Shown here piece by piece: positions 9,707 through 34,628 of a DNA stretch of 64,000 nucleotides. Origin of the DNA: Streptomyces sp. ERV7 (GTDB lineage Bacteria; Actinomycetota; Actinomycetes; Streptomycetales; Streptomycetaceae); the NCBI RefSeq assembly GCF_001653515.1, contig NZ_LYOY01000001.1, positions 1,133,769 through 1,197,768 on the forward strand, given 5' to 3'. The stretch's first letter is position 1. The number at the start of each line of letters is the position of its first letter. Below the pieces are notes generated by a model, which saw nothing but the letters and a program-made list of their open reading frames with translations, made no database searches and was not told where the DNA came from. A program made the translations under genes and the position numbers.

Positions 9707-11311
9707 CCCCGGGCTCTGGTGCCACAGCTTCCGGCCGGTGGCGGCCCGTTCGCCGGGGGGCTGGAGGTCGGCCCAGGGGTTCAGCTGATACCCCGTGGAC
9801 AGTTCGATACGGCGTCCGCCGCCGGGCTCCTCCCCGGGCACCCCTTCGCCCTCGCCCGCACCCTTGCCCCTGTCCTTGTCCTTGTCCTTGTCCTTGTCCT
9901 TGTCCCTGCCGTCGCCGCCGCCCTCGCCGCCGGGCGTCGCCAGACGGGCCGAGACCGCGTCCAGGCCGCCCTCGCGGCGCAGTTCCACCAGTTCGGCCAG
10001 GTTCCAGGCCGCCGCGCCCACCACGCTCAGGCTGCGTGGGCCGCGCCGTTGCACCACCCCTCGTACCAGCAGCAGCCAGGAATGGAAGACCGTGTGAGCG
10101 CAGGCGGCGTGGCTGTCGCCGAAGAAGGCGAGGTCGACCAGGCCCGTTCCATCGTCCAGCGTGGTGAAGATGACCCGCTGACCGGACCGGACGGGCGGGG
10201 TCTGGGTGGCCGCCTTGGCGCCCGCGACCAGGACGGTCTCCCCGTGCCCGGCGTCCCGCAGCCGCTTGGCCGAGACCACTCCCAGCTCCTTCAGGAACGT
10301 CTCGTGATCCACCATCAGATGGCGGGACGTGTCCATGCCGAGGATGCCCAGCTCGGCGCTGAGCCGCTCCGCCTCGTCGAGGTCGGGCAGTCCGGCGCGG
10401 GCCGTCCGCCGCCCGTCGCCGAGCGGGAGCTGGCCGCCACCGGACCCGGCCGCGCGCCGGGCGCGGTGGAGTTCGGCGAGGTGCAGCAGCAGGTCGCGCC
10501 GGTTGCCGCCGAACGCGTCGAGCGCGCCGACCTGGGCGAGCCGTTCGGCCACGGGGCGGCTCGGCCTGGCCCGCCGCCAGAAGTCGAGCAGCGAGGAGTA
10601 GGGCTGCCCCTGTGCGATCCGGGCGGTCTCGGCCTCGCTGATCCCCTGGACGTCCGCGAGCGCCAGACGGAGCCCCCAGATCCGGGAATTGGATACCAGT
10701 TCGATTCGATGGACGGCCGACGACCGGTTCACGTCCACCGGCAGGATCGGCACCCCGCGCCGCCGCGCGTCCGCGAGCAGCAGCCGCTTGGGGTACATCC
10801 CGGGGTCGTGGGTGAGCAGCCCGGCGTAGAAGGCGGCCGGGTGGTGGGCCTTGAGCCAGGCCGACTGGTAGGTCGGCACGGCGAACGCGACGGCGTGCGC
10901 CTTGCAGAAGCCGTACGAGCCGAAGGCCTTGATGATCTCCCAGGTTCGGTCGATCACTTCGGGTGTGTACGAGCGCCCGGCCGCGCACGCGGCGAACCAG
11001 ACGCGGATCTTCTCCTGCGACTCGGGGTCGGAGAGCGCACGCCGCGCCTGGTCGGCCTTGGCCCGGTCGCAGCCGGTCATCACGGACACCATCTCGATGA
11101 GCTGCTCGTGGAAGACGACGACGCCGTAGGTCTCCCCCAGGACGCCCGCCAGGTCCTCGTGCGGATGGCGCACCGGGGCCCGCCCGTGGCGCGCCTCGAT
11201 GAACGGCCGGACCATGTCGGCGGCGACCGGCCCCGGCCGGAAGAGCGAGATGTCCACGACCAGGTCGTGGAAGGTCGAGGGCTGGAGCCGCCCGATCAGA
11301 TCGCGCTGGCC
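9695..11311 (-). pseudogene. dnaE2: 3' fragment of host dnaE2 (C-terminal 538 residues)
   Basis: The frame starts at the Gly-Gln-Arg codons at the element junction and continues GRLQPSTFHDLVVDISLFRP, the conserved C-family polymerase block. It includes the fingers (YGFCKAHAVAFAVPTYQSAW), helix-hairpin-helix, and the OB/tail region ending in LWHQSPGSAG. It lacks PHP and palm domains. The frame is intact with no stops, so the disruption looks recent. A GTG at 11257 could only start a catalytically dead piece. A (GAC-AAG) microsatellite encodes a Lys-Asp repeat linker. The missing N-terminal part lies at 34,625-36,579. DnaE2 is the error-prone replicative-type polymerase of SOS mutagenesis. Confidence 0.95.
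9870..9907 (-). repeat. Hexanucleotide microsatellite in dnaE2 3' fragment
   Basis: The plus-strand unit CCTTGT is repeated about six times, encoding alternating Asp-Lys in the linker near the DnaE2 C-terminus. The element-borne dnaE2 lacks this charged insert at the same place. Confidence 0.85.
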
Positions 11312-11313
11312 CG
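11308..11313. repeat. Left junction core GGCCCG (att site)
   Basis: This is the 6-bp core at the boundary between the dnaE2 3' fragment and the element. On the dnaE2 strand it reads CGGGCC and spans the Pro-Gly-Gln codons. The identical hexamer is at 34623-34628, in direct orientation. Confidence 0.85.
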
Positions 11314-11325
11314 TTCATTAGTCAA

Positions 11326-11352
11326 GTCATGTGTCGGGTTTCTATGTGTCGG
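11326..11352 (+). repeat. Left subterminal sites, candidate recombinase binding repeats
   Basis: ATGTGTCGG occurs twice, at 11329-11337 and 11344-11352, 15 bp apart start to start. The block GTCATGTGTCGGGTTTC (11326-11342) matches, in inverted orientation, GTCACTGTCGGTTTTC near the right end (34592-34607). Both ends also begin with TTC right after the core. These short, imperfect matches suggest arm-type binding sites rather than classic terminal inverted repeats. Confidence 0.6.
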
Positions 11353-11398
11353 CTTCCCTGCTGGCCCCGGGCCCTCTTGAACCGTCCCCGATACCTCG

Positions 11399-12826
11399 TC
11401 AAATGGAGCGGTAGCCGGGCGGCCGCCGACGGATACCGATGAGAGCCTCACGCACCTGGTCCACCAGGGCAGAATCCGGATCGCGCCTATCTACCAGGTC
11501 GTTGTACAGGCTGCCCAACTCCCGGGCTGCGTCCGCGAAGCGGTGCACGTCGCGGAGCAACAGGCCGACGTACAGACGTACCTCCAAGACCACAGTGTTC
11601 GTGGGCGCCCGGTGAGCGCGCAACTGGGTCAGTTCACGCTGGAGGTCATCCAGTGCGCGCTGGTGCTGGCCGAGTCCGATACGACAGCGGGCGGCCTGAA
11701 TGCGGCAGGCGCGGGCGTCGTCCGCCGCCTGTGCGCCGAGGAGCCCGAGTTCGGCGGCCAAGGCGTCATAGGCTGGCAGTGCCGAACTCAGTTTGCCCGC
11801 CTCAAACAGGGCCTGGGCGGCTGCTAGGCGGTCGGCCCGTCCCTCCGCGCTGACCTGCGTGTGGCGCTGCTGAGGACCGGTTGTCGACGTGGCGGCCGAC
11901 AAGCGTAGTGCGTCGCCAGGTATCGGCACCGGGGGCAGCGTCAAGGTCGGCAGGTCGGGGAAGAACAGGTAGCCGGGATGCTGGTGTGGCAGGTGGCCCA
12001 GGAGCTCGTCGATCACGTGGCGAGCACTGTTGGGGCGATCGTCGGCGCGCTTGGCCAGCAGGTCCAGAACGAGCCGTTCCAGTCGCGGGTCAACGTCCCT
12101 GCGGGCGCTGCGCAACGGTGAGGGGGGCTGGAGCACGTGCGCGCACATCAGGTTGACGATGTTGTCCCCGTCGAACAGCCGCTCACCTGCCAGAAGCTCG
12201 TACAGGACCACGCCCAGGGCGTAGAGGTCGGTCTGTGGCGTGATATGACCCGCATCGAACTGTTCGGGGGCCATGTAGTGCGGGCTGCCGATGATCTGTT
12301 GGGGTTTCGTCAGGCGGGTGGGCGCATCCGCTCCCAGGGCCATGGCGATGCCAAAGTCGAGAACCTTCACAGTGCCGTCGACCGCGATCATGATATTGGC
12401 TGGCTTGATGTCGCGGTGGATCACGTGGACTTCGTGGGCGTGGTGCAGGGCGGCGCATACGTGCAAGGCCAGACATACGGCCCACACTGGAGGCACGCTC
12501 CCAGAAGCGTCGATCACCCGCTTCAGGGAGACGCCCTGTACGAGTTCCATGACCATGAACATGCGATCTGCGGTGCCGTCAAGGAAGGCGTCGTGCACCT
12601 GGGGGATGCCCGGGTGGTGCAGCTGCGCGGTCACGCGCACCTCCCGTTGGAAGCGTTCCACGAAGGCGGCAGCGTCATGGTGGGCGGCGAGGTCATCCAG
12701 GATGAGTTTGACGGCGACATCGCGGCCCAAGAGCAGATCGTAGGCGCGCCAGACCTGCCCCATGCCGCCTTCGTCGAGCGATTCGCGCAGCGCGTAGCGC
12801 TTGGCGATGATCCGTGGCTCAGGCAC
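11399..12826 (-). CDS. Cytoplasmic Hanks-type Ser/Thr protein kinase with TPR-like C-terminus
   Basis: The first ~270 of 475 residues form a complete kinase domain: glycine loop LDEGGMGQVWRAYD, VAVKL lysine, HRDIKPANIM catalytic loop, DFG, and YMAPEQ. After a Pro-rich linker the C-terminal ~150 residues form helical repeats resembling tetratricopeptides (SALPAYDALAAELGLLG and following). No transmembrane helix is seen, unlike the PASTA/PknB class. Its start overlaps the end of the AIPR-family gene by 8 bp, so the two are probably translated together. Kinase-containing phage-defence systems are known; its role here as a regulator or effector is inferred only from context. It is the first element gene next to the left junction. 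Confidence 0.88.
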   Translation of the reverse strand: MPEPRIIAKRYALRESLDEGGMGQVWRAYDLLLGRDVAVKLILDDLAAHHDAAAFVERFQREVRVTAQLHHPGIPQVHDAFLDGTADRMFMVMELVQGVSLKRVIDASGSVPPVWAVCLALHVCAALHHAHEVHVIHRDIKPANIMIAVDGTVKVLDFGIAMALGADAPTRLTKPQQIIGSPHYMAPEQFDAGHITPQTDLYALGVVLYELLAGERLFDGDNIVNLMCAHVLQPPSPLRSARRDVDPRLERLVLDLLAKRADDRPNSARHVIDELLGHLPHQHPGYLFFPDLPTLTLPPVPIPGDALRLSAATSTTGPQQRHTQVSAEGRADRLAAAQALFEAGKLSSALPAYDALAAELGLLGAQAADDARACRIQAARCRIGLGQHQRALDDLQRELTQLRAHRAPTNTVVLEVRLYVGLLLRDVHRFADAARELGSLYNDLVDRRDPDSALVDQVREALIGIRRRPPGYRSI

Positions 12827-14990
12827 CGTTCGTGCCGTCCTCCCGCCTCACGTCCCCACCGCTCTCGCCCGGGTACGACTCAGCCGTCTGGGTCTCGTGC
12901 CACAGTTCCTGCGCAAGGTCGCTCAGTGTGGGGCCGCCGGGCATAGCCCAGCGCGTGCTGCCCTGGACCGCGAGCGGGGCGTCGTCCCAGCCAGCCTGCC
13001 GCCACATGTGCACGATCAGACCGGCAAGGGAGTAGCGGCCTCCGTCCGCCGCCCACAGCAGCGGCTTGGCCGTGTCGTTGGTCCATGTCGCCATGAACCG
13101 GTTCGGGTCGGCATTCAGCCACTCCCCGATCGCCTCGTCCTCCCGGGGGCCGGGGTGGTACATGAGCTGGGTGCCCTCTGGCAGCCGGCGCTGATCGACC
13201 AGGAGCCGCACGGGGTTGGGACGCCGCCCGCGGCGCGACTCGGGGGGACGCTGATAGACGGCGAGCTCGGGGTCGTGCCCCGGTCGTTCGAACGACTCCA
13301 GGACGGCTGCCGCCAGGTCCCGGCAAACGGCCGCCTGTGAGAACGTGCGCGAGACGAAGCTGTGCGGCCCGTACAGCAGATCGACTTCGGCGATGAGGTG
13401 GGCCAGGGCCTGAGCAGTGAGTTTCACGGCAGCGTCCAGCATGGGCTGCCAGTCCGCATCAAGGTCGTCGATAGCCTCAATGTCCGTGCGCTGGAACACC
13501 AGATGAGCCACCAGGAGGGCACCGCTCTCCGCGATTGCGGCAGCCCGGCCGGGCAAGGTCGCGGCCAGGTCGTGGACGGTCTGCTGCACGGTGCGTAGCA
13601 GCTGCACCGAGCGCCAGATCTGCACGGCGGAGGGCGGCTCGGCAAACAGCTGCGTATAGCCGCCCTCCGGGGCAGACTGCCACAGGAAGTCGGTGGAGGC
13701 ACGAGTCCCTGCAACCATCCGTGCGTCGGAGTGAGCGCAGGCCAGGGCGGTGGCTGCTTCCAATACGGTGCAGCCCGCGTCGGGCGCGGGCTCAAGTTCA
13801 CCGCGCTTGACGATGTAGTCCTTCTCAAGGGTGAGCCGGAAGTCGTCGCGGATGTAGGCCTGCACCGGATCCAGTGCGATGAAGTCGCGTTGCTCCACAT
13901 GGTTTTGGGTGTTGGTGGCCACCGTGACAGAGCTGGCAAACCCGGGCGGGGTCTGTCCGACGGTGATGATCCTTACCATGACCTTCACCTCGGCGAGCGC
14001 CTGCGGATCGTCCGCGAAAGCGCGGTACAGCGATGCCACAGTCTGTGCACCATTAACGATCTGCGCGTCGGTCAGGGTGAGGCGCACCGGCGCGCCCTGG
14101 GCGCGGCGACCGAAGTACTCGGCGGTGGCCGACTCGCACAGCACCGTGATCCCGTTGTTGAAGTACCAGAATTTCTCGGGGTTTTTGGCCAGGCTGTCGT
14201 CCAGCGTGGCGTTGACCGATGTGTGCCCCAGCGAGCGGCGTACGTTGACGTTAAATAGTTCTCCGCCGTGCCGCTCGTACCAGTGGGCGATCTCGTCGGC
14301 GGTGACCGTGCCGACATGGGCGGGATACGGCAGATCCTGCCCGTACCAGCCGTCGACGAAGGTGGCCGTCACGGTCACTGGCTGTGGCGCCAGGTCCTGG
14401 CGGATCGCCGCGACCAGATCGCTGCTCGCGAGCACCGTCAGATTGGTGCGGGTGTCCAAGTCGGGAGACTCGCGGTGGATCAGCTGCAGGGCGCTCGTCG
14501 CCGGTGCCGCCGGCCCCATGACGGCAGCAACGAGGTGGACCTGGGGCATGGGCTGGGCAAGCACACGGTGGATTCGATCCGCGAAGCCCTGGAATCGGGC
14601 GTTGAAGCGGTCGAAGTCCAGGTTGTCCAGCATCCGGAAGGCGTTGAGGAGCTTAGAGGCGTCGGCGGACGTGAACCGGGCAGCGCCCTGGTCACTCCAC
14701 TTGGCCTGGATCAACCACAACTCACCTGTAGCCTGCGACACGGCCACGGCATCGATGCCGAAGTCATCAGCTCCGTCGGTGACAGCGGCGGCCGCCTCCT
14801 GCGAGGTGCAGTCTGTCGCGATCCGTACTGCCTTCGCCGCGAGGGCACGGGAGAAGAACAGGGTCTCGCGGTTGCGGGCGAACTCGCTCTCCCCCAGGTC
14901 GATCAGCCCGTCGAACTCACTCGCGAGAGCCTGCCGGACCTGCCGCACCTGCAGGGGCGTAGCCGCCTCTGGGTTACTCCCTGCCGTCAC
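12819..14990 (-). CDS. AIPR-family abortive-infection/phage-resistance-like protein with nuclease-like N-terminus
   Basis: The central region carries the AIPR signature (KFWYFNNGITVLCE, then AQIVNGAQTVASLYRAF, and TNTQNHVEQRDF). The N-terminus has a PD-(D/E)xK-like pattern: Asp in DDFGIDAVAV followed by LWLIQAKW. The last ~110 residues (LLVDQRRLPEGTQLMYHPG to GSTRWAMPGGP) resemble a RAMA/DUF4357-type nucleic-acid-binding module. AIPR proteins are named from an Abi plasmid gene and are associated with phage defence. GTG at 14990 is preferred over GTG 15020 because GGAG precedes it at good spacing. It overlaps the kinase gene by 8 bp. Confidence 0.82.
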   Translation of the reverse strand: MTAGSNPEAATPLQVRQVRQALASEFDGLIDLGESEFARNRETLFFSRALAAKAVRIATDCTSQEAAAAVTDGADDFGIDAVAVSQATGELWLIQAKWSDQGAARFTSADASKLLNAFRMLDNLDFDRFNARFQGFADRIHRVLAQPMPQVHLVAAVMGPAAPATSALQLIHRESPDLDTRTNLTVLASSDLVAAIRQDLAPQPVTVTATFVDGWYGQDLPYPAHVGTVTADEIAHWYERHGGELFNVNVRRSLGHTSVNATLDDSLAKNPEKFWYFNNGITVLCESATAEYFGRRAQGAPVRLTLTDAQIVNGAQTVASLYRAFADDPQALAEVKVMVRIITVGQTPPGFASSVTVATNTQNHVEQRDFIALDPVQAYIRDDFRLTLEKDYIVKRGELEPAPDAGCTVLEAATALACAHSDARMVAGTRASTDFLWQSAPEGGYTQLFAEPPSAVQIWRSVQLLRTVQQTVHDLAATLPGRAAAIAESGALLVAHLVFQRTDIEAIDDLDADWQPMLDAAVKLTAQALAHLIAEVDLLYGPHSFVSRTFSQAAVCRDLAAAVLESFERPGHDPELAVYQRPPESRRGRRPNPVRLLVDQRRLPEGTQLMYHPGPREDEAIGEWLNADPNRFMATWTNDTAKPLLWAADGGRYSLAGLIVHMWRQAGWDDAPLAVQGSTRWAMPGGPTLSDLAQELWHETQTAESYPGESGGDVRREDGTNGA

Positions 14991-15268
14991 GCCCCGTCTC
15001 CGTCCGTTTGCGACCAGCACTATACGAACGAGGACGCGCCCAGCTCCACGAGGGTTCCCAGAGGCTCGGCGCGCCCAGAACGGGCCAGTTCCAGAAATGT
15101 AGTGCCACCTACGGCGACCAGCACAGGGCCTGGCTACAAGTCGCTCTTAGGCAGATCCGTCACGAATAGAACACACCATTAGCAACTATGCAACAGGCTC
15201 CCTTAATGCCCAACGCCTTGGAGATTCCCTCTCATTCCTAAAGTCCGAGTTGCTGGATGGTATGGATG

Positions 15269-18200
15269 TCACCAGGCGGCCCGCAGGCTCAAAGTGAGCC
15301 GGTCGTCAGTGAGGGTCGCGTCGAAATCGATTCCGCTGTCGATAATCGTGAGGACGTCGAGATACGTGTCGGCCGGGATGATAGCCACAGTGTCTTGGTT
15401 TGCGTCGGCGGTCAGGGGTGACGGCTGAGGACCGGCGGAGAACCTCAACTGGACGGGGAGGCCGTCAGCGACGGCCACTCCGGTGGTCGTGACATGCAAG
15501 GAGGTATGTCTGGCATCGAGCAGGCTGCCGATCATACTGGGGCGGCGAGTGCGGACGTATTCCAGCAGGTCGTTGATCTCATAGGAGGTGGCGGAAAATT
15601 CGCGGCGCCATCCGTCAATGTGGAGGTCGGTCAGCCAGGCGCGCAGTTCATCAGCGCCAATGTTCCGGTCGTTGGCCGACCGGCCGATCTGGTGGGCGAG
15701 GCGGCGGGAGGTGACACCAGCGTTTAGCAGGGCGAGGGCCTGAGCGGTGTCAACACCGTGGCGCAGGTGCCAACCGACGGTGGCGGGCAGCCTGATCTCG
15801 GCCCGGGCTTGTTCCAGACGAGTGTTGATGAGGTTGGTCAGCGCGCCGAGGGTCCAGGCGAGATAGTGCTCGAAGGTAACGCTGATGTTGCTGACGGTCT
15901 GTTCCAAAGCCCATTCGCGAGGCAGACCCGGCAGCCAGGCGTCGGCGAGGTCGGGGATGGTCGTACCACCGGTCCATCCGGTGATCGCCGCGGCAATGTC
16001 TACGTGGCGGCGAGCGCTGGTGCTGGTCCGCTTCTCAGTGAAAGTCCACGCTTCCTTGGCTTCTGGGAAAGTCAGCAGAACGCCGTACACGCCGTACTGG
16101 GTGAAGAAGTCCAGAGTCCGCTGGAGTGGCCATTCGTCAGGGAGCACGCCAGCCAAGACCTCTGCCCAGATGCCCTCGTAGGCCGGCGCGGTGGCGGCGG
16201 GGTCTCGCAGGAGGGCCTGGGCGAGGGCTTCGGCGATCGAGTCCAGGGCGCGGGCGGTGCCGATGCTGGTGCCCGGGGTGGTCCAGCGCCGCCGGGCGGC
16301 CGGTTCGGTGGCCTCGTACTGTTCGGCGACCTTTGTGGCCAGTTGCAGCCAGCGGTCCTTGAGATCGGGCGGTAGCTGTCGCATGGCCAACAGCCGCTCG
16401 ACGGCGGCCATCGGCTCGATGGCCGTGAGGGTGGGAACGCGGGAGAGCGCGTCTAGGGTGAACCACACGTAGGAGGCGAAGTTGGCAGCGTGATTCTCGG
16501 CGAGCTTGAAGATGGCATCGGCGGTCTCAGCAATCAGCTGTTCGGCGGCGGCGAGGTCGGTCAGGGCGTCGTCGGTGCCGAGCGCGGACAGCACCTGCAG
16601 GCGCTCCGCGCCAGGTTCGAGCAGGGAAAAGTCGGGGGAGCGCGGGTCGCGGTGGCGGGTGAGCAGGATCCAGCCTTCGCTTTCGCGTCCGGCCCGTCCG
16701 GCACGGCCAACGGCGTTGAGCAGTTGCGCTGGTCCCATTTGCGGCTGGCCGGACCAGGTGCGTGGCAGACCGTCGTCGACCTCACTGTTGATGATGACGG
16801 AGCGCACCGGCAGGTTGACGCCGTCGGTGAGCGTGCTGGTACAGCACAGTGCTTTGAGCTGGTCGCTGCGCAGGGCGTCCTCGACGGCGTGCAGGACTTC
16901 GGCGGGCAGTTGGGCGTGGTGGTAGGCGACCCCGTGTCGGGCGCAGTCCACGATCGGGTGGTCGGCGCCGAGGGTGTCGGCGAGGAAGCCAGCGAGTGGG
17001 GCTGCGGGCGGGAATTCGGGCAGGAGAGCGGCGATGGCCTGGGCGGTGTTGCGTGTGGCGAGGCGGGAGGTGCAGACCACCAGGACACTGCCAGTGCGGG
17101 ATAGGTGTGCAGCCCCAAATGCGAATAGGGCGTAGTTCGTCACCGATGAGGCCTGCTTGCCGGTGGTGTCGCCGGGGAACTTCTCACGGTAGACCCGCTG
17201 CCCTAGCGGCTGGTCACGCTGAGTGGCCATGTGAAAAGTCTTGCCGGCCGAGGTCGGGCGGACGCTGATGCGCAGGCCCATCGGCAGGACCGCCTCTGTG
17301 TTGCGGGTCCGGTTTGCGCGCGGCGGGAGCTTGGTACGGGTGAGCTGGTCAGAGAACTTGATTGGGCTCAGAAGACCGTGCAACCGACGGGGCCCGCGCC
17401 ATTGCGAGGTGAACACGACGTCCTCGGCGGGCTGGCTGGGGTCGAGCCAGGCTGCGAGCTCAGCGTGGTTGCCGACCGCGGCAGACAGCAGGACCAGCCG
17501 CGGTGGGCTCGGATGGGCCTGGCAGAACGCCAAGAGTCCTTCGAGGAGGAAGCCGCGCTCCGTGTGCTGCATGTGATGAGCCTCGTCGACCACGATCAGG
17601 CCCACCCCCTCCAGTGCTGCATTCGCGTCCTGCCGCAGGGCGTGCATCAGCCGCTCGGGAGTGAGGACCTCCACATCTCCATCGCCGACTGTGGCTTGGG
17701 CGCCCGGCGCGGGGAAGTCGGGCAGGTCGTCGCCAAGTTTGCGGCCCAGCACTCGTAGCCGGGAGCGAAGGGCCTGGCGCATCTCCCGGCCCAGGCTGCG
17801 CAGCGGCGAGACATACAGCACCCGACCGGCACCAGCAGCCAGATGGGCGCAGATGACTAGCTGTGCCATGAGCGTCTTGCCAGCACTGGTCGGCACGCTG
17901 ATCAGCAGCCGGGAGGTGGCTGGGTCCAGCGGGCGGGACTGTCGCAGCAGTTCCCGCTGCGGCGGCCACAGCGTCATCACTGGAGGGTCGGAGAGGGCGA
18001 AGGCCTGGGCGAGTGCTGGCGGGGTATCGGGAGGCAGCAGCCGCTGGAGACTGCCGTCGGCCAGGTCGTCCAGGAGTTCCAGCAGATGGGCGGCTACCCA
18101 GCGGGCGGAGCGGTCCGCTATGCCGGCGCTGCCAGTGACCACATCCCGCAGATGAGTCCGAGCGGTCTCCAATGCTGCGGGGTCGGCACGGGTAAGAAAC

Positions 18201-19827: not shown

Positions 19828-19994
19828 GCGTACGCTCCGCTTCTACCCGTCACCGGCGAGTCCTCCTAGCATCGAAGACTATCTGGCCGCCCAAGCGTAT
19901 GGCGGAACCTTCCTTTTCATCCGGAATCCCCTTACCCACTGCCTCGCCACCCCTGCTTCCCACCCCCTCCTGAACAAGGCCCAGGCCACCACCC

Positions 19995-20270: not shown

Positions 20271-20286
20271 TCGAACGAATGTGCGA
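20271..20286. promoter_or_regulatory. Putative LexA (SOS) box upstream of element dnaE2
   Basis: TCGAACGAATGTGCGA matches the actinobacterial SOS consensus TCGAAC-N4-GTTCGA at 11 of the 12 defined positions. It lies 78 bp before the dnaE2 ATG. The host dnaE2 has an equally good site at 36630-36645, so both copies are expected to be DNA-damage inducible. Confidence 0.65.
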
Positions 20287-23853: not shown

Positions 23854-23859
23854 CCGGCG

Positions 23860-24834: not shown

Positions 24835-24894
24835 GCGACTGGCGGCGACGAACCCCCTGCAGGCAGAAAGAACCGAAGGATTCGGACCGGCATC

Positions 24895-24932
24895 TTGACA
24901 CATGAACAGTGATAAACGAATCATGAATCATG
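24895..24932 (+). promoter_or_regulatory. Probable sigma-70-type promoter giving a leaderless transcript, with direct repeat
   Basis: TTGACA (24895-24900) is followed after 18 bp by AATCAT (24919-24924), a 4/6 match to TATAAT. The ATG of the HTH gene is at 24930, where transcription should start, so the message is probably leaderless. AATCATG is repeated directly at 24919-24925 and 24926-24932, overlapping -10 and start codon, a natural position for autorepression. Confidence 0.55.
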
Positions 24933-25259: not shown

Positions 25260-25301
25260 CCGACGGGGCCGGTGTTTGCGGTCACGGCCGGGTGAGGCAG
25301 G

Positions 25302-27109: not shown

Positions 27110-27119
27110 GGACGGTCCT

Positions 27120-28217
27120 TCAATGCGACGACAACGGTGACGTGCGGTGACCTTCGACGTACAAGTGCTGGAAGTCCTCTGGCAGCAACCGGGCGCAGCC
27201 GGCTGCCGATTCGAGGGTAAGCCCGCGCTCGTCGAGCAATGTTCGTACGAGTGCGGGGACGGTCCGGGGTTGCTCGCGGGGGATCTCGACGGGTTCGGCC
27301 GTGCGGTAGCCGAGCGCGGACATCTCGATGACGAGGGTGCGGTGCTGCCATTCGGTCAGCGCGTTCAGGTCAAGGGCGCGGCGCAACAATGCGCTCATGG
27401 ACACTCGCCAGGTCCGCTTGAGCTCCATGAGCCGTTGCAGATCGACACCGCCCTTGAAGGCGTTCCGGATATCCGCGGCCGGCATGAGCAGCTCCGCCGC
27501 GAAGGCGTCGGCCTGCTTCTCCTGCCGGGATCCGGTACCGGGTTCCACGTGCATGACCAGGTGGCCGAGTTCATGGGCGACGCTGAACCGGCAACGGTCA
27601 CCGGGCGCCTGACCGTTGACCAGAAGCAGCGGCGAACCGCTCCCGTCCCACTGGCTGACGGCGTCCAGCAGATCGCTGCCGAGATCGCGTACGACCACCA
27701 GGGCGCCGGCGTTCTCGACCGCCTTGATCACATCCGGGAGCGGTCCGGGCGGCAACCGCCACGCTTTGCGTACTTGCCGTGCAGCATCCTTCGGGGTCGT
27801 GAGCAGATCCAGTGGAACGCGCAGGAAATCAGAGGCTTGATCAGAAGCCCCTGCCGCCGACGTGATCCCCTCCAACTGCATGCGAGTCAGGGCCAGTTGA
27901 GCGTGCACCTGGCGCAGCACGGAGGCGGACAGGGCGGCCTTCTTGCGGTGATGGATCAGCCCGACACCAACCCCTCCCACCTGCGGATCGACGCACAGCA
28001 GGTCTTGCGGGTAGCCCAGCGCGGCCGCATACCACTCCAGTCGGTCGTCGCAGACGGCGAGTCGTCCGGACTCCGCTCGGCTCACGTATCCCTGCGACAC
28101 CGCCGTCGCCCCCATGGGAGATGCCTTGGTCATGGCGACAGAGACGTCCACCTGCGTGAGTCCGCGGGACTCACGCAGCAGAACGAGCATTCCGGGATGG
28201 GCTTGCCTGCCGGCCAT
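27120..28217 (-). CDS. XRE-family regulator fused to ImmA/IrrE-type zinc protease
   Basis: The 365-residue protein has an N-terminal helix-turn-helix (GMLVLLRESRGLTQVDVSVA, then AVSQGYVSRAESGR) and a central ImmA/IrrE metallopeptidase domain with HELGHLVMH and a downstream acidic ligand region (EKQADAFAAELLMPA). ImmA/IrrE proteases cleave a partner repressor to switch on mobile elements or stress genes. ATG 28217 has AAGGAGG 7 bases upstream. It precedes the TGT-like gene in one operon. It may sense damage or control excision of the element; no cleavable partner is identified. Confidence 0.85.
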   Translation of the reverse strand: MAGRQAHPGMLVLLRESRGLTQVDVSVAMTKASPMGATAVSQGYVSRAESGRLAVCDDRLEWYAAALGYPQDLLCVDPQVGGVGVGLIHHRKKAALSASVLRQVHAQLALTRMQLEGITSAAGASDQASDFLRVPLDLLTTPKDAARQVRKAWRLPPGPLPDVIKAVENAGALVVVRDLGSDLLDAVSQWDGSGSPLLLVNGQAPGDRCRFSVAHELGHLVMHVEPGTGSRQEKQADAFAAELLMPAADIRNAFKGGVDLQRLMELKRTWRVSMSALLRRALDLNALTEWQHRTLVIEMSALGYRTAEPVEIPREQPRTVPALVRTLLDERGLTLESAAGCARLLPEDFQHLYVEGHRTSPLSSH

Positions 28218-28338
28218 TCCTTCACCTCCTTCGACCTCAATCCAATCCTCAGAATAGCACCTCGGATTATTCCACACTCGATGCCGCCAATGATTGCCCT
28301 GTGTGAGGACCGTCTGCGCAGGTCGGGGCCATGGCAGA

Positions 28339-28800
28339 TCAGTCCTCCGGGTTCGCCGACAGGGACCTGCGACCGGGCCCGCGCCGCCGCGGCATGGACA
28401 CCACCGTGGCGTCGGCCACGTCCTCCTGGTCGCGGCGCAGGTTCTCCACCTCGACCGCGAGCTCCACCGCAGTCCGGCGCAGGAAAGCGGTCAACTCCCT
28501 TTCCGCTACGAGCTGTTGCTTTGTCTCCTTCAATTCATCGACGACGGCCGCGTACCGCTCCGCGAGTTCTTGGGCGGCAGTCGGCACGCGGTCCTGCGCC
28601 TGGGCGCGAAGCCGGAACTCATCGACCAGGTCCTGGTGGTGGGGATAGACCACGTCCCGGCGCAACCCCGACTCGACGATGAGCTCGGTGGCGGTCAGCT
28701 TGCCCGAGGCCGAGCGCAGGGGAGTGCCGGCCAGCAGCCGCTCGGCCGCCGCTTTGATCGCGGTGGCGTCTCTGTCCCGGTCACGAGGTCTGCGCCCCAT
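28339..28800 (-). CDS. TnpC-like accessory protein (DUF6262 type) of the recombinase module
   Basis: The 153-residue protein starts MGRRPRDRD and has a helix-turn-helix-like section (AAAERLLAGTPLRSASGKLT, then TATELIVESGLRRDVVY) followed by a long coiled coil (about residues 65-125, rich in E, R and L). Small proteins of this type follow tyrosine recombinases in Tn554-like elements, where TnpC affects orientation and efficiency. It overlaps the upstream recombinase by 20 bp. The match to DUF6262 is from memory of the family layout. Confidence 0.7.
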   Translation of the reverse strand: MGRRPRDRDRDATAIKAAAERLLAGTPLRSASGKLTATELIVESGLRRDVVYPHHQDLVDEFRLRAQAQDRVPTAAQELAERYAAVVDELKETKQQLVAERELTAFLRRTAVELAVEVENLRRDQEDVADATVVSMPRRRGPGRRSLSANPED

Positions 28801-30976
28801 CGAGCCGCTCCTTTCCCGCTTGCTTCTGTCGGCTGCTTCCGTGCCGCCCCAGCTCATGTGCGGCGATCACCGCGCGCGCCCGGGCGGCTTTCGCCGCCTC
28901 CCGTTCCCTCAGGGGCCTGGGCGACAGCGGATCGGCTGCGGCGGCCTCGTGCCGGGTGAGTTCTCTCTTCTTGTCCTCGATGTCGCGGTCGGTGTAGGCG
29001 AGGTTGACGCATGCGGTGCGGCAGAGCGGCTCGTCCGGTCCGTGCACGTCCACCCCGGCTGCTTCGCGTTCCTCTCGGCAGCCCGCGGTCTCGTATCGCC
29101 ATACGCAGGTCATGCCCCGTCCGTGGTGGATGTCGGGATGTTTGCTGGACAGCAGCCGTTGGGCGTTGTCGGCGTGGATGACGACGCGCCCGGTGAACAC
29201 GGCCGCCGACTTCCGGACCCGGTGGCGGTACTCCTGTGCGGAGGGTCCGCTGACGTGTTCGCCGTCGTCGAGCGCTCGCAGGTCCTCGTCCACCTGCTCG
29301 CTGACCATCTCCAGTTCCTCGAGGGCGAGGTCCTCCATCCAGCTGGTGTCGGCGTCTCCGGCGTAGCCGAGGGTCACCTTGGCCCGGATGTGCCCGTACT
29401 GCGCTTGCGCCGCCGCGAGTCCGCCCGGGCGTCGCACCACGAAGTAGGCGAGCGTACGGCGGAAACGTGCCGCGTGAATGTCCTTCGTCGGGTCGGGCGG
29501 GATGGCCGGATCGTCCCGACCGGAGAACTGGGCGTTCACCCAGCCCATGAACTCCCGGATGTCGTCGTTCATCGTGCCCGACGGCTTCGACTGCTTCCGG
29601 CGTGAGCGGACCGTGGTGGTACGTTGCCGGCTCGGCGGGAACAGCAGCTCGGCATCGGAAAGCGACTCCAGTATCCGCACGACCGGAGCGACCGCGCCGA
29701 CCACGGCCCACGCCCGTTCCTCCGTCTCCTCCGGGTCGGGATCAGGATCATGGTCGGAGCCTTTGCTGCGCCGCCCGACGAGTACAAGTCCGCCGTACTC
29801 GTCCTCGCGCAGGCATCCGCGGCGGAGCTGCAGAACTTCACCGCTGCGCATGCCGGAGAGGTAGCAGATGACGATGAAGCATGCGGCCGTCAGGTAGCGC
29901 ACCAACTGGTTGACCTCGCGCACGCCGATCGGGCGGTCGCGCCACGGGGCGCCCTGGAAGCTGCCGGTGATCGGACCGAGGAAGTAGGCGTCGGATTCCA
30001 GTTCAAGGCCGTAGTCCTCGGCCATGGACAGCAGCAGGCCGTCGTACGGCTTCACATGGGGTCCGGTGGACGCCACCATACGGGCGATGTGCTGGTGATC
30101 CACTCCGAGCCGGCCGCCGTGCCGCTCGCGGCGTTTCGTGCCGGGCAGCCCGCGGCCCGCGCGGTGAAGTTCGGCCACGTAGACCGCCAGACGCCCCTTC
30201 AAGGAACCGGAGCTGAATCGGTCGCGTGCCGCCAGGGTCGCCGGGTGCCGCCCGTCCAAGAGCAGTCGTGCTTCCCGGGCCGCGTCGCGGATGTCGGGCC
30301 CGAAGTCCTCAACCATCCGAAGGGCCCACGCCAGCAAGGCATCCATGGTGACGGGATCGATGCGCGGCGTCTTGTTGTACCGGCTCTGAACGCGCTTGAC
30401 GCCGACCAGGTCATCCGCCGAGGCGGCACCCCATGGTCTGCGGTGCGGGAGACGGTGCTCGTCGGGCAGCGTGTCCCGGTAACCCCAGACGACCCGAACT
30501 GCGTGCAACAGGCGCCGCTTGTCCTCCGTGGAGTTGGTCAGGGCAAGGACGTGACTCTTGTACAGGCCCAGGTCCCGACTGCTGACATCGCACAAGCGCG
30601 TAAACCCGCGCGTATCCAGCCATGCAGCAAAGGGTGACATGGACATGATCCATTTGTGAATCGTCAGGACCTCGGGTTGCTCATCGATCAGTCCAGGCCG
30701 CAGTTGAGCGGGCCAGTTGGTGTTGAGCGCGACCCATGCACACGTCGTGAAGCCTTCCCGCAAGGAGTCGGGCATCAGGCGCGGCCAGTTCTCACTGACC
30801 GGACACAACTGATCATCAAGCAGCCCGGGGCCCAGGTGCCAGACCGGGTCCCCGAACCGGGACAGTGTGGCCTTGTCCGTCGAGTCGCGGAGCGGTCGGT
30901 GAGCCAGGACCACGGTGTCCGGTCCCGGCAGCAGCGCTGCCCCGACCGAGGGGTCGGATGTCGGCACGGAGGTCAT
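28781..30976 (-). CDS. Large tyrosine recombinase, third gene of the integration module (TnpB-like)
   Basis: The 731-residue protein has a helical N-terminal DNA-binding region and a catalytic domain with Arg in YLSGMRSGEVLQLRRG, the HxxR box in DIHAARFRRTLAYF, and the nucleophile Tyr probably in KVTLGYAGDADTSW. A Cys-rich stretch near the end (CVWRYETAGC and LCRTACVNLAYTD) looks like a zinc knuckle common in these large recombinases. Start ATG 30976 overlaps the upstream stop (ATGA). Its length is near that of Tn554 TnpB (about 630). Confidence 0.85.
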   Translation of the reverse strand: MTSVPTSDPSVGAALLPGPDTVVLAHRPLRDSTDKATLSRFGDPVWHLGPGLLDDQLCPVSENWPRLMPDSLREGFTTCAWVALNTNWPAQLRPGLIDEQPEVLTIHKWIMSMSPFAAWLDTRGFTRLCDVSSRDLGLYKSHVLALTNSTEDKRRLLHAVRVVWGYRDTLPDEHRLPHRRPWGAASADDLVGVKRVQSRYNKTPRIDPVTMDALLAWALRMVEDFGPDIRDAAREARLLLDGRHPATLAARDRFSSGSLKGRLAVYVAELHRAGRGLPGTKRRERHGGRLGVDHQHIARMVASTGPHVKPYDGLLLSMAEDYGLELESDAYFLGPITGSFQGAPWRDRPIGVREVNQLVRYLTAACFIVICYLSGMRSGEVLQLRRGCLREDEYGGLVLVGRRSKGSDHDPDPDPEETEERAWAVVGAVAPVVRILESLSDAELLFPPSRQRTTTVRSRRKQSKPSGTMNDDIREFMGWVNAQFSGRDDPAIPPDPTKDIHAARFRRTLAYFVVRRPGGLAAAQAQYGHIRAKVTLGYAGDADTSWMEDLALEELEMVSEQVDEDLRALDDGEHVSGPSAQEYRHRVRKSAAVFTGRVVIHADNAQRLLSSKHPDIHHGRGMTCVWRYETAGCREEREAAGVDVHGPDEPLCRTACVNLAYTDRDIEDKKRELTRHEAAAADPLSPRPLREREAAKAARARAVIAAHELGRHGSSRQKQAGKERLDGAQTS

Positions 30977-32943
30977 CGCAGATCCATCCTTCCGTTGATG
31001 AGGTCGTCCACGAGCGCCCGCTCGGCGGCCGTGACGCGGTCGCGGGCGGCGGAGCGCTCGGCCGGGGTGTAATCCCTCAGCAGGTTGGACAGGCGAGCGA
31101 ACGTCTCGGCGTGGAGGTGGGCCCACAGGCGCGGATCGAGGTCGCGCTTCAGATGCTTGAGTCGACCGTGTGCCTCGACTTGGACCGGCAGCTGGTGGGG
31201 CAGTGCACGCGCGTTCTCGCACCGCAGACAGTCGTCGAGAAAAGAGGCGCCGCACGGCTTCCCGGGCCCCGTGAACGGGCTGTCCTCCGGGGCCGTGCAG
31301 CCCACCAGCACGGTGTCCTGCTCACCGGAGATCAGTCGGGCTAGAGTCTTCGTGTCTACGCCAATATCGGCCGCGGCCTGCTCCGGGGCCTCGGCGGCGC
31401 GTGCGAGGAAGTCGTCGGTCAGCACCGGAACCTCCTGCACCGCCCGCGCCTTGGTGACCTCCTCCTCCAGAGCTTCGCGCATGACCGTGCGCCCGCGCTC
31501 GGTCGCCGGCCGGCTCGTCCGTAGATAGTTCTGGTAGGTCTCCCTGGTGTGCGCCACGGGCCTTCCCCCGCGTTCCAGCGCCGCCCGCCGAAGCCGGTGC
31601 ACATTGACCGACAGCCCCTTGTCCTCCGCCTCTTCGGCCTTCTCCTTCCCCCTGTCCTGCTCGGTCGTCGCACCATCGTCATCGTCAGGGAGTTCACCAG
31701 GTGAACCACCCCCGCGCTCCGGGCGGTCGGCTCTCACCTCAGGACGGAAGTCGTGCCCCGCCGCCCAGGCCACGATCCCGCTCCGATGGGTGCCGTTCCC
31801 CCACGCGAGACCTCCCCGAGCGCGGACTTTCGGATAGCAGAAGGCGTGTGTTTCTCCGCCGTGGCGTCTCGCCAACTCCGTCAGGTCCAGCAGCAGTTGG
31901 TAGACGCGGAAGGCGGAACGGAACAGATGCTTGTCGTCATCCTCCGTCTGCAGGACGCCGACAAGCGATGCGGGCACGTCCTCCAATGATGTCACCATGA
32001 ACTCCAACGACGGCCCGCGCCGTGGCTTCACCTCGTCCACGAGAGCCAGTGCGGGCCCTCCGAGGTCACCGTCCGGCCGGAAGTGCGCCGCCGGCCATTC
32101 CCCGATGGTGCCGAAGTTCTCGCTGGTGAGATCGATGAACATCAAGCAGAACGCCACCGTCTCCGTGCGCGTCAGCGTCAGCCGGGACACAAGTTCGTGG
32201 GTCCCGCCCAGTGCCTGCACCCAGGAAGGGATGCCACCCTGCGGCTTCGACGGCGTCACGCGCCGCAGCACGTCTCCAGTCCGGTCGAGGGTGTCCAGCA
32301 CGCGGCCGAGCTTTTCGGCATGGTTGAAGCGGCCGGGTGGGCCGAGGTCGCCGCGGCGGTACGCGGCCAGGACCTCACGCCCAGCCTGGATCCGGTCACG
32401 GGCGACGCGGATGTCGTGACGGACCGCGGTCATGAGCTCCTGATGTTCGTCGTGGCTGTACGGCTGCACCTTCGACTCGTACGCGGGCAACCGCCCGTGC
32501 AGGATGGCGTTCCGCGCCTCGGTCGACAGCTCCTTGTCTGCACGGAAGGTCGCCCGCAGCCGCTCTACGTGGGACTTCCTGGAGCCCAGCGAAACTGCGA
32601 GCAAGCTCTCCTTGATGTGGACGGCCGTAATGTGCGCGGGCTCGTGCACAACCGGGTCCACCTTCGCGAGATATCCCGCCAGGAGCTGCACACCGGACCA
32701 GAGCCCCTCGGCAGCGCTGGCCCGCTTGACTCCGGAAGTCGGTCCAGTAGCCCGCGCGAAGGACCGGGCCAACCACCGCTGAATGCCGGTACTGACCTGC
32801 AGTTTCGTGAAGTCGTAGACCTTGCTGCGCCGCCCCTTCTCCTCGACGAAGAAGACGCTGCACTCGTCCTCGGTAATGATGAGCCGCTCCGGCGACTGCC
32901 AGTTCCCGGGAGGCACGCTCGCCTTACGACCTCTGCGGCTCAC
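30973..32943 (-). CDS. Large middle protein of the recombinase module, catalytic residues not evident
   Basis: The 656-residue protein is coupled by ATGA overlaps on both sides to true recombinases, so it belongs to the same machine. It has a basic N-terminus, long helical segments and a C-terminal four-Cys cluster (VGCTAPE, KPCGA, DDCLRCENA) resembling a zinc ribbon. I cannot find a convincing Arg...HxxR...Tyr set, so it may be an inactive recombinase or structural subunit. In recombinase-in-trio elements all three genes are normally recombinases, which makes the missing catalytic box notable. Confidence 0.7.
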   Translation of the reverse strand: MSRRGRKASVPPGNWQSPERLIITEDECSVFFVEEKGRRSKVYDFTKLQVSTGIQRWLARSFARATGPTSGVKRASAAEGLWSGVQLLAGYLAKVDPVVHEPAHITAVHIKESLLAVSLGSRKSHVERLRATFRADKELSTEARNAILHGRLPAYESKVQPYSHDEHQELMTAVRHDIRVARDRIQAGREVLAAYRRGDLGPPGRFNHAEKLGRVLDTLDRTGDVLRRVTPSKPQGGIPSWVQALGGTHELVSRLTLTRTETVAFCLMFIDLTSENFGTIGEWPAAHFRPDGDLGGPALALVDEVKPRRGPSLEFMVTSLEDVPASLVGVLQTEDDDKHLFRSAFRVYQLLLDLTELARRHGGETHAFCYPKVRARGGLAWGNGTHRSGIVAWAAGHDFRPEVRADRPERGGGSPGELPDDDDGATTEQDRGKEKAEEAEDKGLSVNVHRLRRAALERGGRPVAHTRETYQNYLRTSRPATERGRTVMREALEEEVTKARAVQEVPVLTDDFLARAAEAPEQAAADIGVDTKTLARLISGEQDTVLVGCTAPEDSPFTGPGKPCGASFLDDCLRCENARALPHQLPVQVEAHGRLKHLKRDLDPRLWAHLHAETFARLSNLLRDYTPAERSAARDRVTAAERALVDDLINGRMDLR

Positions 32944-34562
32944 GCGTCGCCCTCCGGGTCGTCGAGAAGCTCCACATCCTCGGGAACCGGAGACAGGACC
33001 AGCTCACTGTCCGCAGCGACCTTCCCCAGCAGGATGTCAACGGCCTCCCGCTGATCACCATCGACCAGCGCCATCAGGTAGTCGACTTCCAGCGCCGTGA
33101 AGGGAGCCAGGTACCAGTCCCTGGTGGTCTGCGGGTTGCGATGCCCGAGCATCGTCGCCAACTGGTACCAGACATCGCCGAACTGCTCACGGAACGCATG
33201 CTTCTCGGCCTCGGTGAACCCTTGGAGGCGCTGCTCCCACACGGCGCTCAGGATCGAGTACCAGACCAGCGCGTAGGAGTGCCGCAACATGTGCGGCCGA
33301 GCCCACAGCGGGCACTGGGCTGCCCGCCTCTCCCGCTCCTCCGCCTCCAGGTCGTCGAACCCGGGCCACCGCGAGCGCGCCCACGCCTGGGCGACCCGGG
33401 AGTTGGCGGTGGTAAACGTGTTCTCCCAGCTGTGGGCCCGATGCGGCATGCCGTCGACGCTCAGCCAGACGGCGAGCGGCTCCAGCCCGCCCGCCGTCTC
33501 CCGGAACAAACGGATCCGCTCCTGCGGCCCCAGAACATCAAGGGACAGCGTCGCGGAACTCCCGAGCGGGGCCTGCACTTTGAGTGTCTTCGACCGCGGG
33601 TTGTGCCCGGTCACGATCACCAGGCCGGGCACCCGCTCGTACCGGCCGGCCCGCTGCGCCCGCCCGATCGCCTCCGCCCGCGAACCCTCCATCGGGTCCA
33701 TGTAGCCTGCCACGGCTTTCACAACCGCCCGCGGAATCCGGAAGTTACGTCCGTAGCGCCGCCCCTTGGCGCAGGACTGCGCCAGCCACACCTTCGGGTA
33801 CCTGCTCGTCACGGGTGTCGGCGGCAGCTCGACATCCAGGACGCTCGCCCACTCCTCCAGCCGAAGCCCCGTACCCCACAGCCCCTCGACGAACGCCGTG
33901 TTCCGGTCCTCGTTGAAGCCGTGCCAGCTCCCCGGACGCAGGCCGTCGAACCCGTAGCCCCTCAGCCCCACGTCCTTCCACTGCTCGAAAGCCTTGCGCA
34001 GCAGCCACTTCACCTGACGGCGAGGCGCTCCAGCCGGACGAGACGGGTCCCGGCGCGCCGTCCCGTGCCCGCCGTTGCCACCGGACTGCGCGGACTGGGA
34101 CGGGATCGGGTTGAAGACCTCGTACTCGCCAGAGGCCCACGCGTAGAACCTCTTGAGCCCCGCCCTGTCGGTGTCGAAGGACGTCCCCTCCACCCGCCAG
34201 TAATTACGGGCATCAGTCATCCGCCAGTGCTTGAAGTCCGTGTAGTCGCGCTTGCTCGCCTCGTACCAGAGCCGTCCCCGCTGCTCCAGGAAGTTCAGCC
34301 AGACGACGAGCGCGTACGCATACCGGCGCCACGTGGTCCGCTGCTTGGATACGATCTCGTCAGCACGGAAGAAGAGGTTGATCCACGGATCCGTGCCGTG
34401 TCGCCTTGACCAGATGATGGGTGTGCCGTCCCGCGCGCCGTTCTCGCGTGCTCTTTCGTGTACGTCGCCCAGCTGTCCCAGATCCACACCGCCCGCAGGG
34501 ACAGGGAAGTCCCGGCTCAGGTCGTAGAACTCGACAGCCCAGGAACCCTCGGGCTCCTCCAT
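32940..34562 (-). CDS. Tyrosine recombinase, first gene of the integration module (TnpA-like)
   Basis: The 540-residue protein has an N-terminal SAM-like core-binding domain (RRYAYALVVWLNFLEQRG) and a catalytic domain with Arg in GTGLRLEEWASVL, the HxxR box in PHMLRHSYALVWY, then LGHRNPQTTRDWY with the second His and Tyr nucleophile. All catalytic residues are present. Its ATG (34562) is only about 60 bp inside the right junction, with GGAGG upstream, so promoter and attachment site are interlaced. The following two genes overlap by ATGA, indicating a single polycistronic message. Confidence 0.9.
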   Translation of the reverse strand: MEEPEGSWAVEFYDLSRDFPVPAGGVDLGQLGDVHERARENGARDGTPIIWSRRHGTDPWINLFFRADEIVSKQRTTWRRYAYALVVWLNFLEQRGRLWYEASKRDYTDFKHWRMTDARNYWRVEGTSFDTDRAGLKRFYAWASGEYEVFNPIPSQSAQSGGNGGHGTARRDPSRPAGAPRRQVKWLLRKAFEQWKDVGLRGYGFDGLRPGSWHGFNEDRNTAFVEGLWGTGLRLEEWASVLDVELPPTPVTSRYPKVWLAQSCAKGRRYGRNFRIPRAVVKAVAGYMDPMEGSRAEAIGRAQRAGRYERVPGLVIVTGHNPRSKTLKVQAPLGSSATLSLDVLGPQERIRLFRETAGGLEPLAVWLSVDGMPHRAHSWENTFTTANSRVAQAWARSRWPGFDDLEAEERERRAAQCPLWARPHMLRHSYALVWYSILSAVWEQRLQGFTEAEKHAFREQFGDVWYQLATMLGHRNPQTTRDWYLAPFTALEVDYLMALVDGDQREAVDILLGKVAADSELVLSPVPEDVELLDDPEGDA

Positions 34563-34591
34563 GCATATGCCTCCGCGCCGATGTCCGAGCC

Positions 34592-34607
34592 GAAAACCGA
34601 CAGTGAC
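34592..34607 (-). repeat. Right subterminal site matching left end
   Basis: On the minus strand this reads GTCACTGTCGGTTTTC, an imperfect inverted match to 11326-11342. It lies between the tnpA-like start and the right core. Confidence 0.5.
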
Positions 34608-34622
34608 TCAGACAGTAGAGAA

Positions 34623-34628
34623 GGCCCG
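34623..34628. repeat. Right junction core GGCCCG (att site)
   Basis: This is the direct copy of the left core at 11308-11313. It forms the last codons of the dnaE2 5' fragment before element sequence begins. Confidence 0.85.

What the first reader, a model, noticed from the sequence alone, without database searches (positions are those of the whole stretch)
11308..34628. A mobile element interrupts dnaE2 while carrying a complete replacement dnaE2-imuB pair
The two ends of the element split a host dnaE2 precisely at the Pro-Gly-Gln codons; joining 34,629 to 11,308 restores an intact ~1,190-residue polymerase. The element itself encodes full-length DnaE2 (20365-23853) and ImuB (23860-24834). 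Elements that insert in tRNA genes and rebuild them are well known, but I know of no described case that targets the SOS mutagenic polymerase and supplies a whole substitute. It would let the element take over host mutagenesis and make excision or loss neutral.
Basis: partly seen in the sequence, partly recalled or inferred. Interest (0 to 1): 0.97.

Follow-up and report, generated by a model that had tools for sequence, protein, structure and literature searches.

The report
Polymerase-swapping mobile island in dnaE2
A 23-kb DNA island, predicted to be mobile, has cut a Streptomyces strain's SOS-type DNA polymerase gene (dnaE2) in two while carrying its own complete copy behind a predicted DNA-damage switch, and three similar islands in two other bacterial genomes suggest that such elements likely replace the polymerase they break.

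Summary
A 23.3-kb island interrupts the syntenic chromosomal dnaE2 at the ESPG|Q codons, with the 6-bp core CGGGCC at both junctions; joining the flanks gives an open 1,189-residue frame. A four-gene tyrosine-recombinase operon (GInt/SE-like) lies at one end. The cargo includes an intact dnaE2 plus its Y-family partner (DinB2-type rather than true ImuB). The only two perfect LexA boxes in the 64 kb precede the two dnaE2 genes.

The pattern recurs. In Streptomyces sp. AC550_RSS872 (G157) a related operon sits at the same codons; between the host flanks a plasmid-type dnaE2 is itself split by a second, intact island carrying a third dnaE2 pair. Among 87 fetched gin loci only these abut a DnaE gene.

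Best reading: islands that replace the SOS polymerase they break. Mobility, loss of host function and cargo activity are inferred. Cargo-type pairs also occupy the dnaE2 locus without an adjacent operon in three strains, so the direction of transfer is unsettled, and G157 was found through its cargo.

The parts
11308..34628 (.). whole island (23.3 kb) with one 6-bp core copy at each end
11308..11313 (.). core GGCCCG (+ strand), junction with host dnaE2 C-part
34623..34628 (.). core GGCCCG (+ strand), junction with host dnaE2 N-part
34629..36579 (-). N-part of host dnaE2 (PHP, catalytic domain, start of fingers)
9695..11308 (-). C-part of host dnaE2
32940..34562 (-). first recombinase gene (GinA/IntA-like); R234, K266, H424, R427, H474, Y484 invariant in the 11 aligned sequences (read by me as the catalytic set)
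30973..32943 (-). second gene of the operon, no recognisable catalytic set, invariant Cys cluster; fold match to tyrosine recombinases weak
28781..30976 (-). third gene, tyrosine-recombinase-like (R377, K405, R506/R507, H529, Y538 invariant in the 11 aligned sequences)
28339..28857 (-). fourth small gene of the operon (172 aa, GinD/Srap position)
20365..23853 (+). cargo dnaE2, complete (GTG start possible at 20359)
20271..20286 (+). perfect match to the Streptomyces LexA motif, beginning 94 bp upstream of cargo dnaE2
   Evidence: motif from PMC9380542
36630..36645 (+). perfect LexA-motif match upstream of host dnaE2
15269..18916 (-). cargo: HamB-like DEAD-box helicase (defence type); neighbour 18901-19827 without a match
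12819..15020 (-). cargo: AIPR / AbiU-like protein
11399..12826 (-). cargo: Ser/Thr protein kinase
27120..28277 (-). cargo: RmrA-like HTH + ImmA/IrrE peptidase

Best explanation
Window 11,308-34,628 is a 23.3-kb three-recombinase (GInt/SE-like) island that has split the resident dnaE2 between its ESPG and Q codons and that carries a complete second dnaE2 with its Y-family partner behind a perfect LexA-motif match, so it likely replaces the SOS polymerase that it breaks. Shown by sequence: the split, the 6-bp core at both ends, the open rejoined frame, the operon, the intact cargo under purifying selection, and insertion at the same or homologous codons in two further genomes. Inferred: the recombinases exchange strands within the 6-bp core in the fingers-domain codons of dnaE2. 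Inferred: the split gene no longer gives a working polymerase. Inferred: LexA releases the cargo pair on DNA damage and it takes over the host's role. Inferred: exact excision would restore the host gene. Repeated rounds, in which a substitute gene is itself hit (G157) or the island decays around a retained substitute (as yr375 suggests), would leave the host with a swapped polymerase.
For: Exact junctions, core and rejoined frame. Host copy is the syntenic chromosomal gene. G157: GinA 86% identical over residues 91-539, same codons, 78% DNA identity over 9.4 kb across the junction. G157 island B: intact four-gene operon of another subfamily splits a plasmid-type dnaE2 at GFCRA|H with core CGCGCC and carries a cargo-type pair. 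The window's island and B share the end layout GAA-[6 bp]-TTC. G525: GinA 61-62%, DnaE2A split at ESRA|Q. A second contig has the rest of ginA and the other three operon genes (55-64%), ImuA', ImuB and DnaE2; the two contigs end in the two sides of one IS insertion in ginA (12-bp duplication, exact inverted ends). Two perfect LexA boxes in 64 kb, both at dnaE2 promoters (chance mean 0.29, 3 of 100 shuffles reach 2). Both nested polymerases of G157 have one, as do 4 of 6 other cargo-type genes, the other 2 having one mismatch at that position (5.4% of random 300-bp stretches have a site at one mismatch or less). Cargo dnaE2 dN/dS 0.08-0.23. Of 87 fetched gin loci (84 distinct, usually 1.5 kb of flank) only those of G000, G157 and G525 hold a DnaE match. 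None of 28 other gin operons tabulated lies within 100 kb of a listed dnaE2 (15 testable on one contig).
Against: The halves of the host gene show no decay in G000 (no stops, dN/dS 0.23-0.32 against 0.26 for an intact pair), so loss of function is recent or only assumed. Cargo-type pairs occur outside islands: at the dnaE2 locus (AW19M42, 150FB, yr375) and away from its flank genes in others, and dnaE2 is common on Streptomyces plasmids, so the pair could be ordinary cargo. G157 was found through its cargo. In G157 island A the left end with the host C-part is gone and about 59 kb lie between the plasmid-type pair and the operon, so that this pair was island A's cargo is inferred from order and orientation. 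In G525 the contig join is inferred, the cargo DnaE2 runs off its contig, and no LexA box was seen in the 300 bp upstream of its ImuA'. The dnaE2 list behind one search was capped. No mobility data.
Confidence: 0.72

Rival explanations
1. The dnaE2 pair is incidental cargo: dnaE2 cassettes circulate widely in Streptomyces, these islands pick up genes from relatives, and the meeting of target and cargo is coincidence.
For: dnaE2-like genes on many plasmids; cargo-type pairs away from the dnaE2 flank genes; GInt cargo is drawn mostly from related bacteria (PMC5385486, Results read).
Against: All four dnaE2-splitting islands have or appear to have a dnaE2 set, against 0 of 28 gin operons elsewhere within 100 kb (15 testable); the type matches in G525 (DnaE2A target, ImuA'-ImuB-DnaE2 on the contig with the operon).
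Confidence: 0.15
2. Survivor bias at the level of the host: the recombinases hit several sites, and only insertions that bring a spare polymerase persist in dnaE2; the element has no special strategy.
For: Relatives of both operons sit elsewhere, so target choice is flexible; the outcome would look the same.
Against: Not excluded. dnaE2 is regarded as non-essential (PMC12926913, passage seen), so selection against bare insertions may be weak; the same or homologous codons are hit in G000, G157 and G525.
Confidence: 0.3
3. The cargo-type pair was already a resident of the dnaE2 locus and the island's ends enclosed it later (reverse direction), as in AW19M42 or 150FB where it sits beside the same flank gene.
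For: Cargo-type pair beside the flank gene g18 in AW19M42 and 150FB with no gin operon beside it.
Against: In G157 the cargo-type pair is inside island B with an intact operon, within another dnaE2; in yr375 a host partner remnant flanks it; AW19M42 keeps an extra LexA box upstream of the cargo-type one, which fits later arrival.
Confidence: 0.1
4. Assembly or contamination artefact (G000 is rated 5.04% contaminated).
For: Contamination value; the window lies at a contig end.
Against: An independent assembly shows the same junction at 78% DNA identity and another a homologous one (G525).
Confidence: 0.02

Closest known systems
GInts (genomic islands with three integrases, ginABCD; PMC5385486, abstract and Results read, passages of the Discussion)
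   Same: Four-gene operon at one end with tyrosine-recombinase proteins and a small fourth protein; diverse cargo; 6-nt exchange region; site-specific use of genes as targets.
   Different: Here the protein without a catalytic set is the second, not the third; the target is cut in its middle, whereas the authors think insertion probably does not completely inactivate targets (passage seen); the cargo includes a copy of the target. The words Actinobacteria and Streptomyces do not occur in the paper's main text.
SEs, strand-biased circularizing integrative elements (intA-tfp-intB + srap; PMC10214605, abstract and section 12 read)
   Same: Operon order with a recombinase-fold protein (Tfp, the GinC counterpart) in the middle.
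   Different: Reported from Gammaproteobacteria but not other taxa and sequence-distinct from GInts; not compared by sequence here.
Elements in tRNA or 3' gene ends that rebuild the target (recalled)
   Same: Insertion compensated by element-borne sequence.
   Different: They restore a few bases or an end; here a whole separate gene pair with its own LexA box is supplied.
DnaE2B-iPolY-RecA (Streptomyces) and ImuA-ImuB-DnaE2A polymerase modules (PMC12926913, section 20 and passages read)
   Same: Cargo in G000/G157 is of the first kind, in G525 of the second.
   Different: In the parts seen they are not described as cargo of an island that splits the same gene; 'plasmid' does not occur in the main text and 'mobile' once.

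Membership tests
GInt | operon of three integrase-type genes plus a small fourth gene at one end of the island | tested here: met
   (two of the three have recombinase residues, the second only a weak fold match); homologous four-gene sets in plasmid and chromosomal islands
GInt | degenerate recombinase is the third gene (GinC lacks the first Arg / the Tyr) | tested here: not met
   here the second gene lacks the catalytic set and the third keeps R, K, R, H, Y
GInt | imperfect direct repeats of 10-17 nt with a 6-nt exchange region | tested here: inconclusive
   exact 6-bp core only; G525 cores differ at 2 of 6 positions
GInt | sequence homology to published GinABCD | not tested
   reference sequences were not obtained
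GInt | excision to a circle needing all four genes | not testable with these tools
   -
SE | intA-tfp-intB-srap order | tested here: inconclusive
   order of active and degenerate proteins fits; identity to Tfp/Srap not tested; host range reported as Gammaproteobacteria
DnaE2 error-prone polymerase (cargo) | C-family domains; groups with DnaE2 and not with the genome's DnaE1 | tested here: met
   (28% to the fourth, DnaE1-like place against 60-66% to the split gene)
ImuB (cargo partner in the window) | part of an ImuA-ImuB-DnaE2A module | tested here: inconclusive
   the next ORFs 24921-25484 and 25302-25925 have no Pfam match; ImuA was not searched for in the genome; best fit is the DinB2-type partner of Streptomyces DnaE2B

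The most novel reading that the evidence does not exclude
A class of recombinase-driven islands specialised on the SOS polymerase gene: each insertion destroys the resident dnaE2 and installs a matched, self-regulated replacement (DnaE2B with DinB2-type partner into DnaE2B, ImuA'-ImuB-DnaE2 into DnaE2A). Rival islands then hit each other's substitutes, as in the nested case of G157, and over time the island decays and leaves the host with a swapped mutagenic polymerase, as at the yr375 locus. The substitute makes the host depend on the island, a natural counterpart of a gene drive's rescue copy.
Probability: 0.45. Interest if true: 0.93.

Novelty: new variant of a known kind. Interest (0 to 1): 0.86.

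Why it matters
If true, a mobile element controls by replacement which error-prone polymerase a bacterium uses under DNA damage, and solves the cost of breaking a gene by bringing a whole substitute. It would help explain the patchy, swapped dnaE2 alleles of Streptomyces and give a testable case of target-gene rescue by an integrative element. I found no such description in the searches, which cover an open-licence library only and of which I saw listings.

Tried and rejected
Serine recombinase or conjugative element: no Pfam match above cut-off for the operon (one sub-cut-off hit for the fourth gene); weak XerC-type matches for the first gene; many GinA homologues carry precomputed PF02899/PF13495 (integrase SAM-like domains by recall). 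RIT and Tn554-type trios were considered from memory only and not tested.

GInt-wide rule ('every such island carries a copy of its target'): for 12 other gin loci the ORFs of the 1.5 kb before ginA were compared with 20-40 kb of the cargo side. 11 of 12 gave nothing; G295 gave a 72% paralogue, but that flank gene ends 327 bp before the ginA match and is not split. Rejected as a general rule.

Self-immunity by recoding: the cargo reads AGT CCG GGG CAG AGA where intact chromosomal genes read TCG or TCA CCN GGN CAG CGN. The other cargo-type genes printed there also use AGY, so this is not evidence of design; left open.

Decay of the split gene: not seen in G000. The joined host gene has the longest end branch of its 19-row group (0.28), but only slightly.

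Structure of the second operon protein: mean pLDDT 67, best PDB match XerA with E 0.74; not used as proof.

First genome-contig scan with the single partner protein found nothing; the second, with a three-sequence alignment, gave 38 loci, of which 12 at 69-84% were taken as cargo-type.

Sampling (each count includes the starting genome where it lies in the set; the sets overlap): GinA at E<=1e-3 in 41 of 150 genomes of the genus and at E<=1e-60 in 26 of 392; second-subfamily GinA at E<=1e-70 in 20 of 392; first-family GinA at E<=1e-150 in 3 of 199 relatives of G157, E<=1e-100 in 6 of 384 of the family, E<=1e-110 in 3 of 293 relatives of G525. The 28 operons were picked by me from the places listed (most fragments and weak hits left out), the dnaE2 places, whose list was cut; the numbers were typed.
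Full report
What is there. The window is the last 64 kb of a 1.2-Mb contig of genome G000. Host dnaE2 is on the minus strand, in two parts: 34629-36579 (N) and 9695-11308 (C). Between them lie 23.3 kb. The 6-bp core GGCCCG stands at 11308-11313 and 34623-34628. Joining the flanks at one core gives an open frame of 1,189 residues whose junction reads IESPGQRDLIGRL, like intact genes. Upstream genes (ABC-2-type protein, trypsin-like proteins, sepF, acyl-CoA dehydrogenase) are those found next to dnaE2 in other genomes of the genus. So the broken copy is the ordinary chromosomal one.

The recombinase end. Immediately inside the N-side junction are four genes reading inward. The first protein keeps R, K, H, R, H and Y in all of 11 aligned sequences. 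The third keeps R, K, R, H, Y. The second has no such set, and a model of it matches XerA only weakly. The fourth is small. The same four-gene set with other cargo (mercury genes, transporters) is found on Streptomyces and Rhodococcus plasmids. This is the layout of GInts (PMC5385486) and SEs (PMC10214605); the position of the degenerate protein fits SEs better, and homology to the published sets was not tested. I therefore say 'works like a GInt/SE' and do not file it as a member.

The cargo. Besides the dnaE2 pair there is a set of defence-type genes: a HamB-like helicase, an AIPR/AbiU-like protein, a kinase and an RmrA-like protein. The cargo dnaE2 evolves under purifying selection (dN/dS 0.17-0.23 against three relatives; 0.08 for the G157/yr375 pair). 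Its partner is of the DinB2 type that PMC12926913 (section 20) pairs with Streptomyces DnaE2B. The LexA motif of S. venezuelae (tCGAAC-N4-GNNCGa; PMC9380542, passages, whose Table 1 gives dnaE2 a fold change of 30.62) has exactly two perfect matches in the window, one before each dnaE2. Both nested polymerases of G157 have a perfect match upstream, as do four of six other cargo-type genes; AW19M42 and globisporus have a 1-mismatch version at that position. The two intact host-type genes checked have 1-mismatch sites. The cargo ImuA' of G525 has none in 300 bp.

Recurrence 1 and 2: Streptomyces sp. AC550_RSS872 (G157). It was found because it has a cargo-type partner gene and then proved to have GinA at 86%. 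Its contig C94 shows, in order: host flank genes; a truncated host partner gene (82345-83169); the N-part of a plasmid-type dnaE2 (87450-89777); an intact four-gene operon of another subfamily (89845-95846); a cargo-type dnaE2 pair (115236-119638); the C-part of the plasmid-type dnaE2 with its partner (125947-128054); about 59 kb of other genes; the first-family operon, broken by frameshifts (187077-193266); and the host dnaE2 N-part, also frameshifted (193289-195222), followed by the normal upstream genes. Island B (36 kb) splits its target at GFCRA|H with core CGCGCC. Its ends, like those of the window's island, read GAA-[6 bp]-TTC. The plasmid-type pair lies between the host flanks in the same orientation as the window's cargo, so I take it as island A's cargo. 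This is inference, because island A's left end is lost.

Recurrence 3: G525, an unnamed relative, found with GinA alone. GinA (61-62%) abuts the N-part of a DnaE2A-type polymerase (the three closest plasmid matches are annotated error-prone DNA polymerase), cut at the homologous codons, ESRA|Q. The C-part is on another contig behind a right end that matches the window's (CTTGACTARTGAA). A third contig continues ginA across what the sequence shows to be one IS insertion (12-bp duplication, exact inverted ends). It carries the other three operon genes (55%, 57% and 64% identity), an AbiEi-like gene, ImuA' (above the NCBIfam cut-off), ImuB and a DnaE2 that is 52% identical to the split one and runs off the contig. 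So a different polymerase class is hit at the same place and the matching module is at hand.

Specificity. Of 87 gin loci fetched (84 distinct; mostly with 1.5 kb of flank), only those of G000, G157 (A and B) and G525 hold a DnaE match; two more loci fetched later do not. Of 28 other gin operons tabulated, 0 lies within 100 kb of a listed dnaE2 (15 have a dnaE2 on the same contig; Fisher p 2.6e-4 with four islands, 1.2e-3 with three).

Where the cargo type comes from. In the tree of 80 dnaE2 rows (70 different) the cargo type is a distinct group of 17 (support 100) apart from the chromosomal and the plasmid type; how these groups join is unsure (midpoint root, long-branch warning). Of the 12 genomes with a cargo-type pair, six (G150, G153, G154, G155, G158, G160) have it as their only dnaE2 besides a DnaE1-like gene. 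It sits at the normal dnaE2 locus in AW19M42, 150FB and yr375; in G152, G153, G155, G156, G159 and G160 no dnaE2 flank gene was found in the stretches fetched, and G151 and G161 were not followed beyond 10 kb. In yr375 the order host-partner remnant, cargo pair, two dehydrogenase genes, flank protease is collinear with the window minus the operon, which fits a decayed island. In AW19M42 the pair has the host's orientation, not that of the window's cargo. This speaks for repeated swaps but leaves the direction open: islands may seed the locus, or pick the pair up from it.

Mechanism. Most likely the operon's recombinases exchange strands in a 6-bp core within conserved fingers-domain codons of dnaE2 (inferred from the ends). 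The host gene is then in two pieces and likely inactive (inferred). The substitute with its own LexA box would be released on damage and do the work (inferred from box, intactness and selection). Loss by exact excision would restore the host gene (sequence shows an open frame), while decay of the island would leave the substitute in place.

Known or new. I found no description of such an island in six library searches. The GInt paper holds that insertion probably does not completely inactivate targets. It also mentions two GInts at the end of a duplicated ribonucleotide reductase gene, a possible parallel that I could not examine. From memory, deletion of dnaE2 in S. coelicolor had little effect on UV mutagenesis, so 'takes over mutagenesis' should not be assumed.

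Noticed in passing
window 39863-49124: Genes reading like an FxSxx-type cluster (ParA/TPR-like 39863-43813, TIR-like 43782-45122, radical SAM 46398-47780) between the dnaE2 flank genes; names are recalled, from the translations.
   Followed up: no
L078 (G097:C69:128001-147000) 5721-12241: An intact dnaE2 pair lies between an N-terminal dnaE2 fragment (residues 1-268, next to g18) and a C-terminal partner-gene fragment, all at the normal locus: looks like another past replacement.
   Followed up: no
L079 (G021:C4:404001-424000) 7754-12147: The chromosomal dnaE2 pair is inverted in place relative to its flanks in other genomes.
   Followed up: no
window 11399-28277: The island is also a defence-type cluster (HamB-like, AIPR/AbiU-like, kinase, RmrA-like); the 308-aa neighbour 18901-19827 of the HamB-like gene has no match and could be its partner.
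   Followed up: partly
L225 (G101), L227 (G128), L228 (G081), L233 (G156): Several genomes hold partial plasmid-type dnaE2 copies, with no match to either gin operon in the fetched stretch.
   Followed up: partly
L137 (G157:C94 59845-60534) and window 11399-12826: A Ser/Thr kinase gene 43% identical to the island kinase lies on the G157 contig outside its islands.
   Followed up: no
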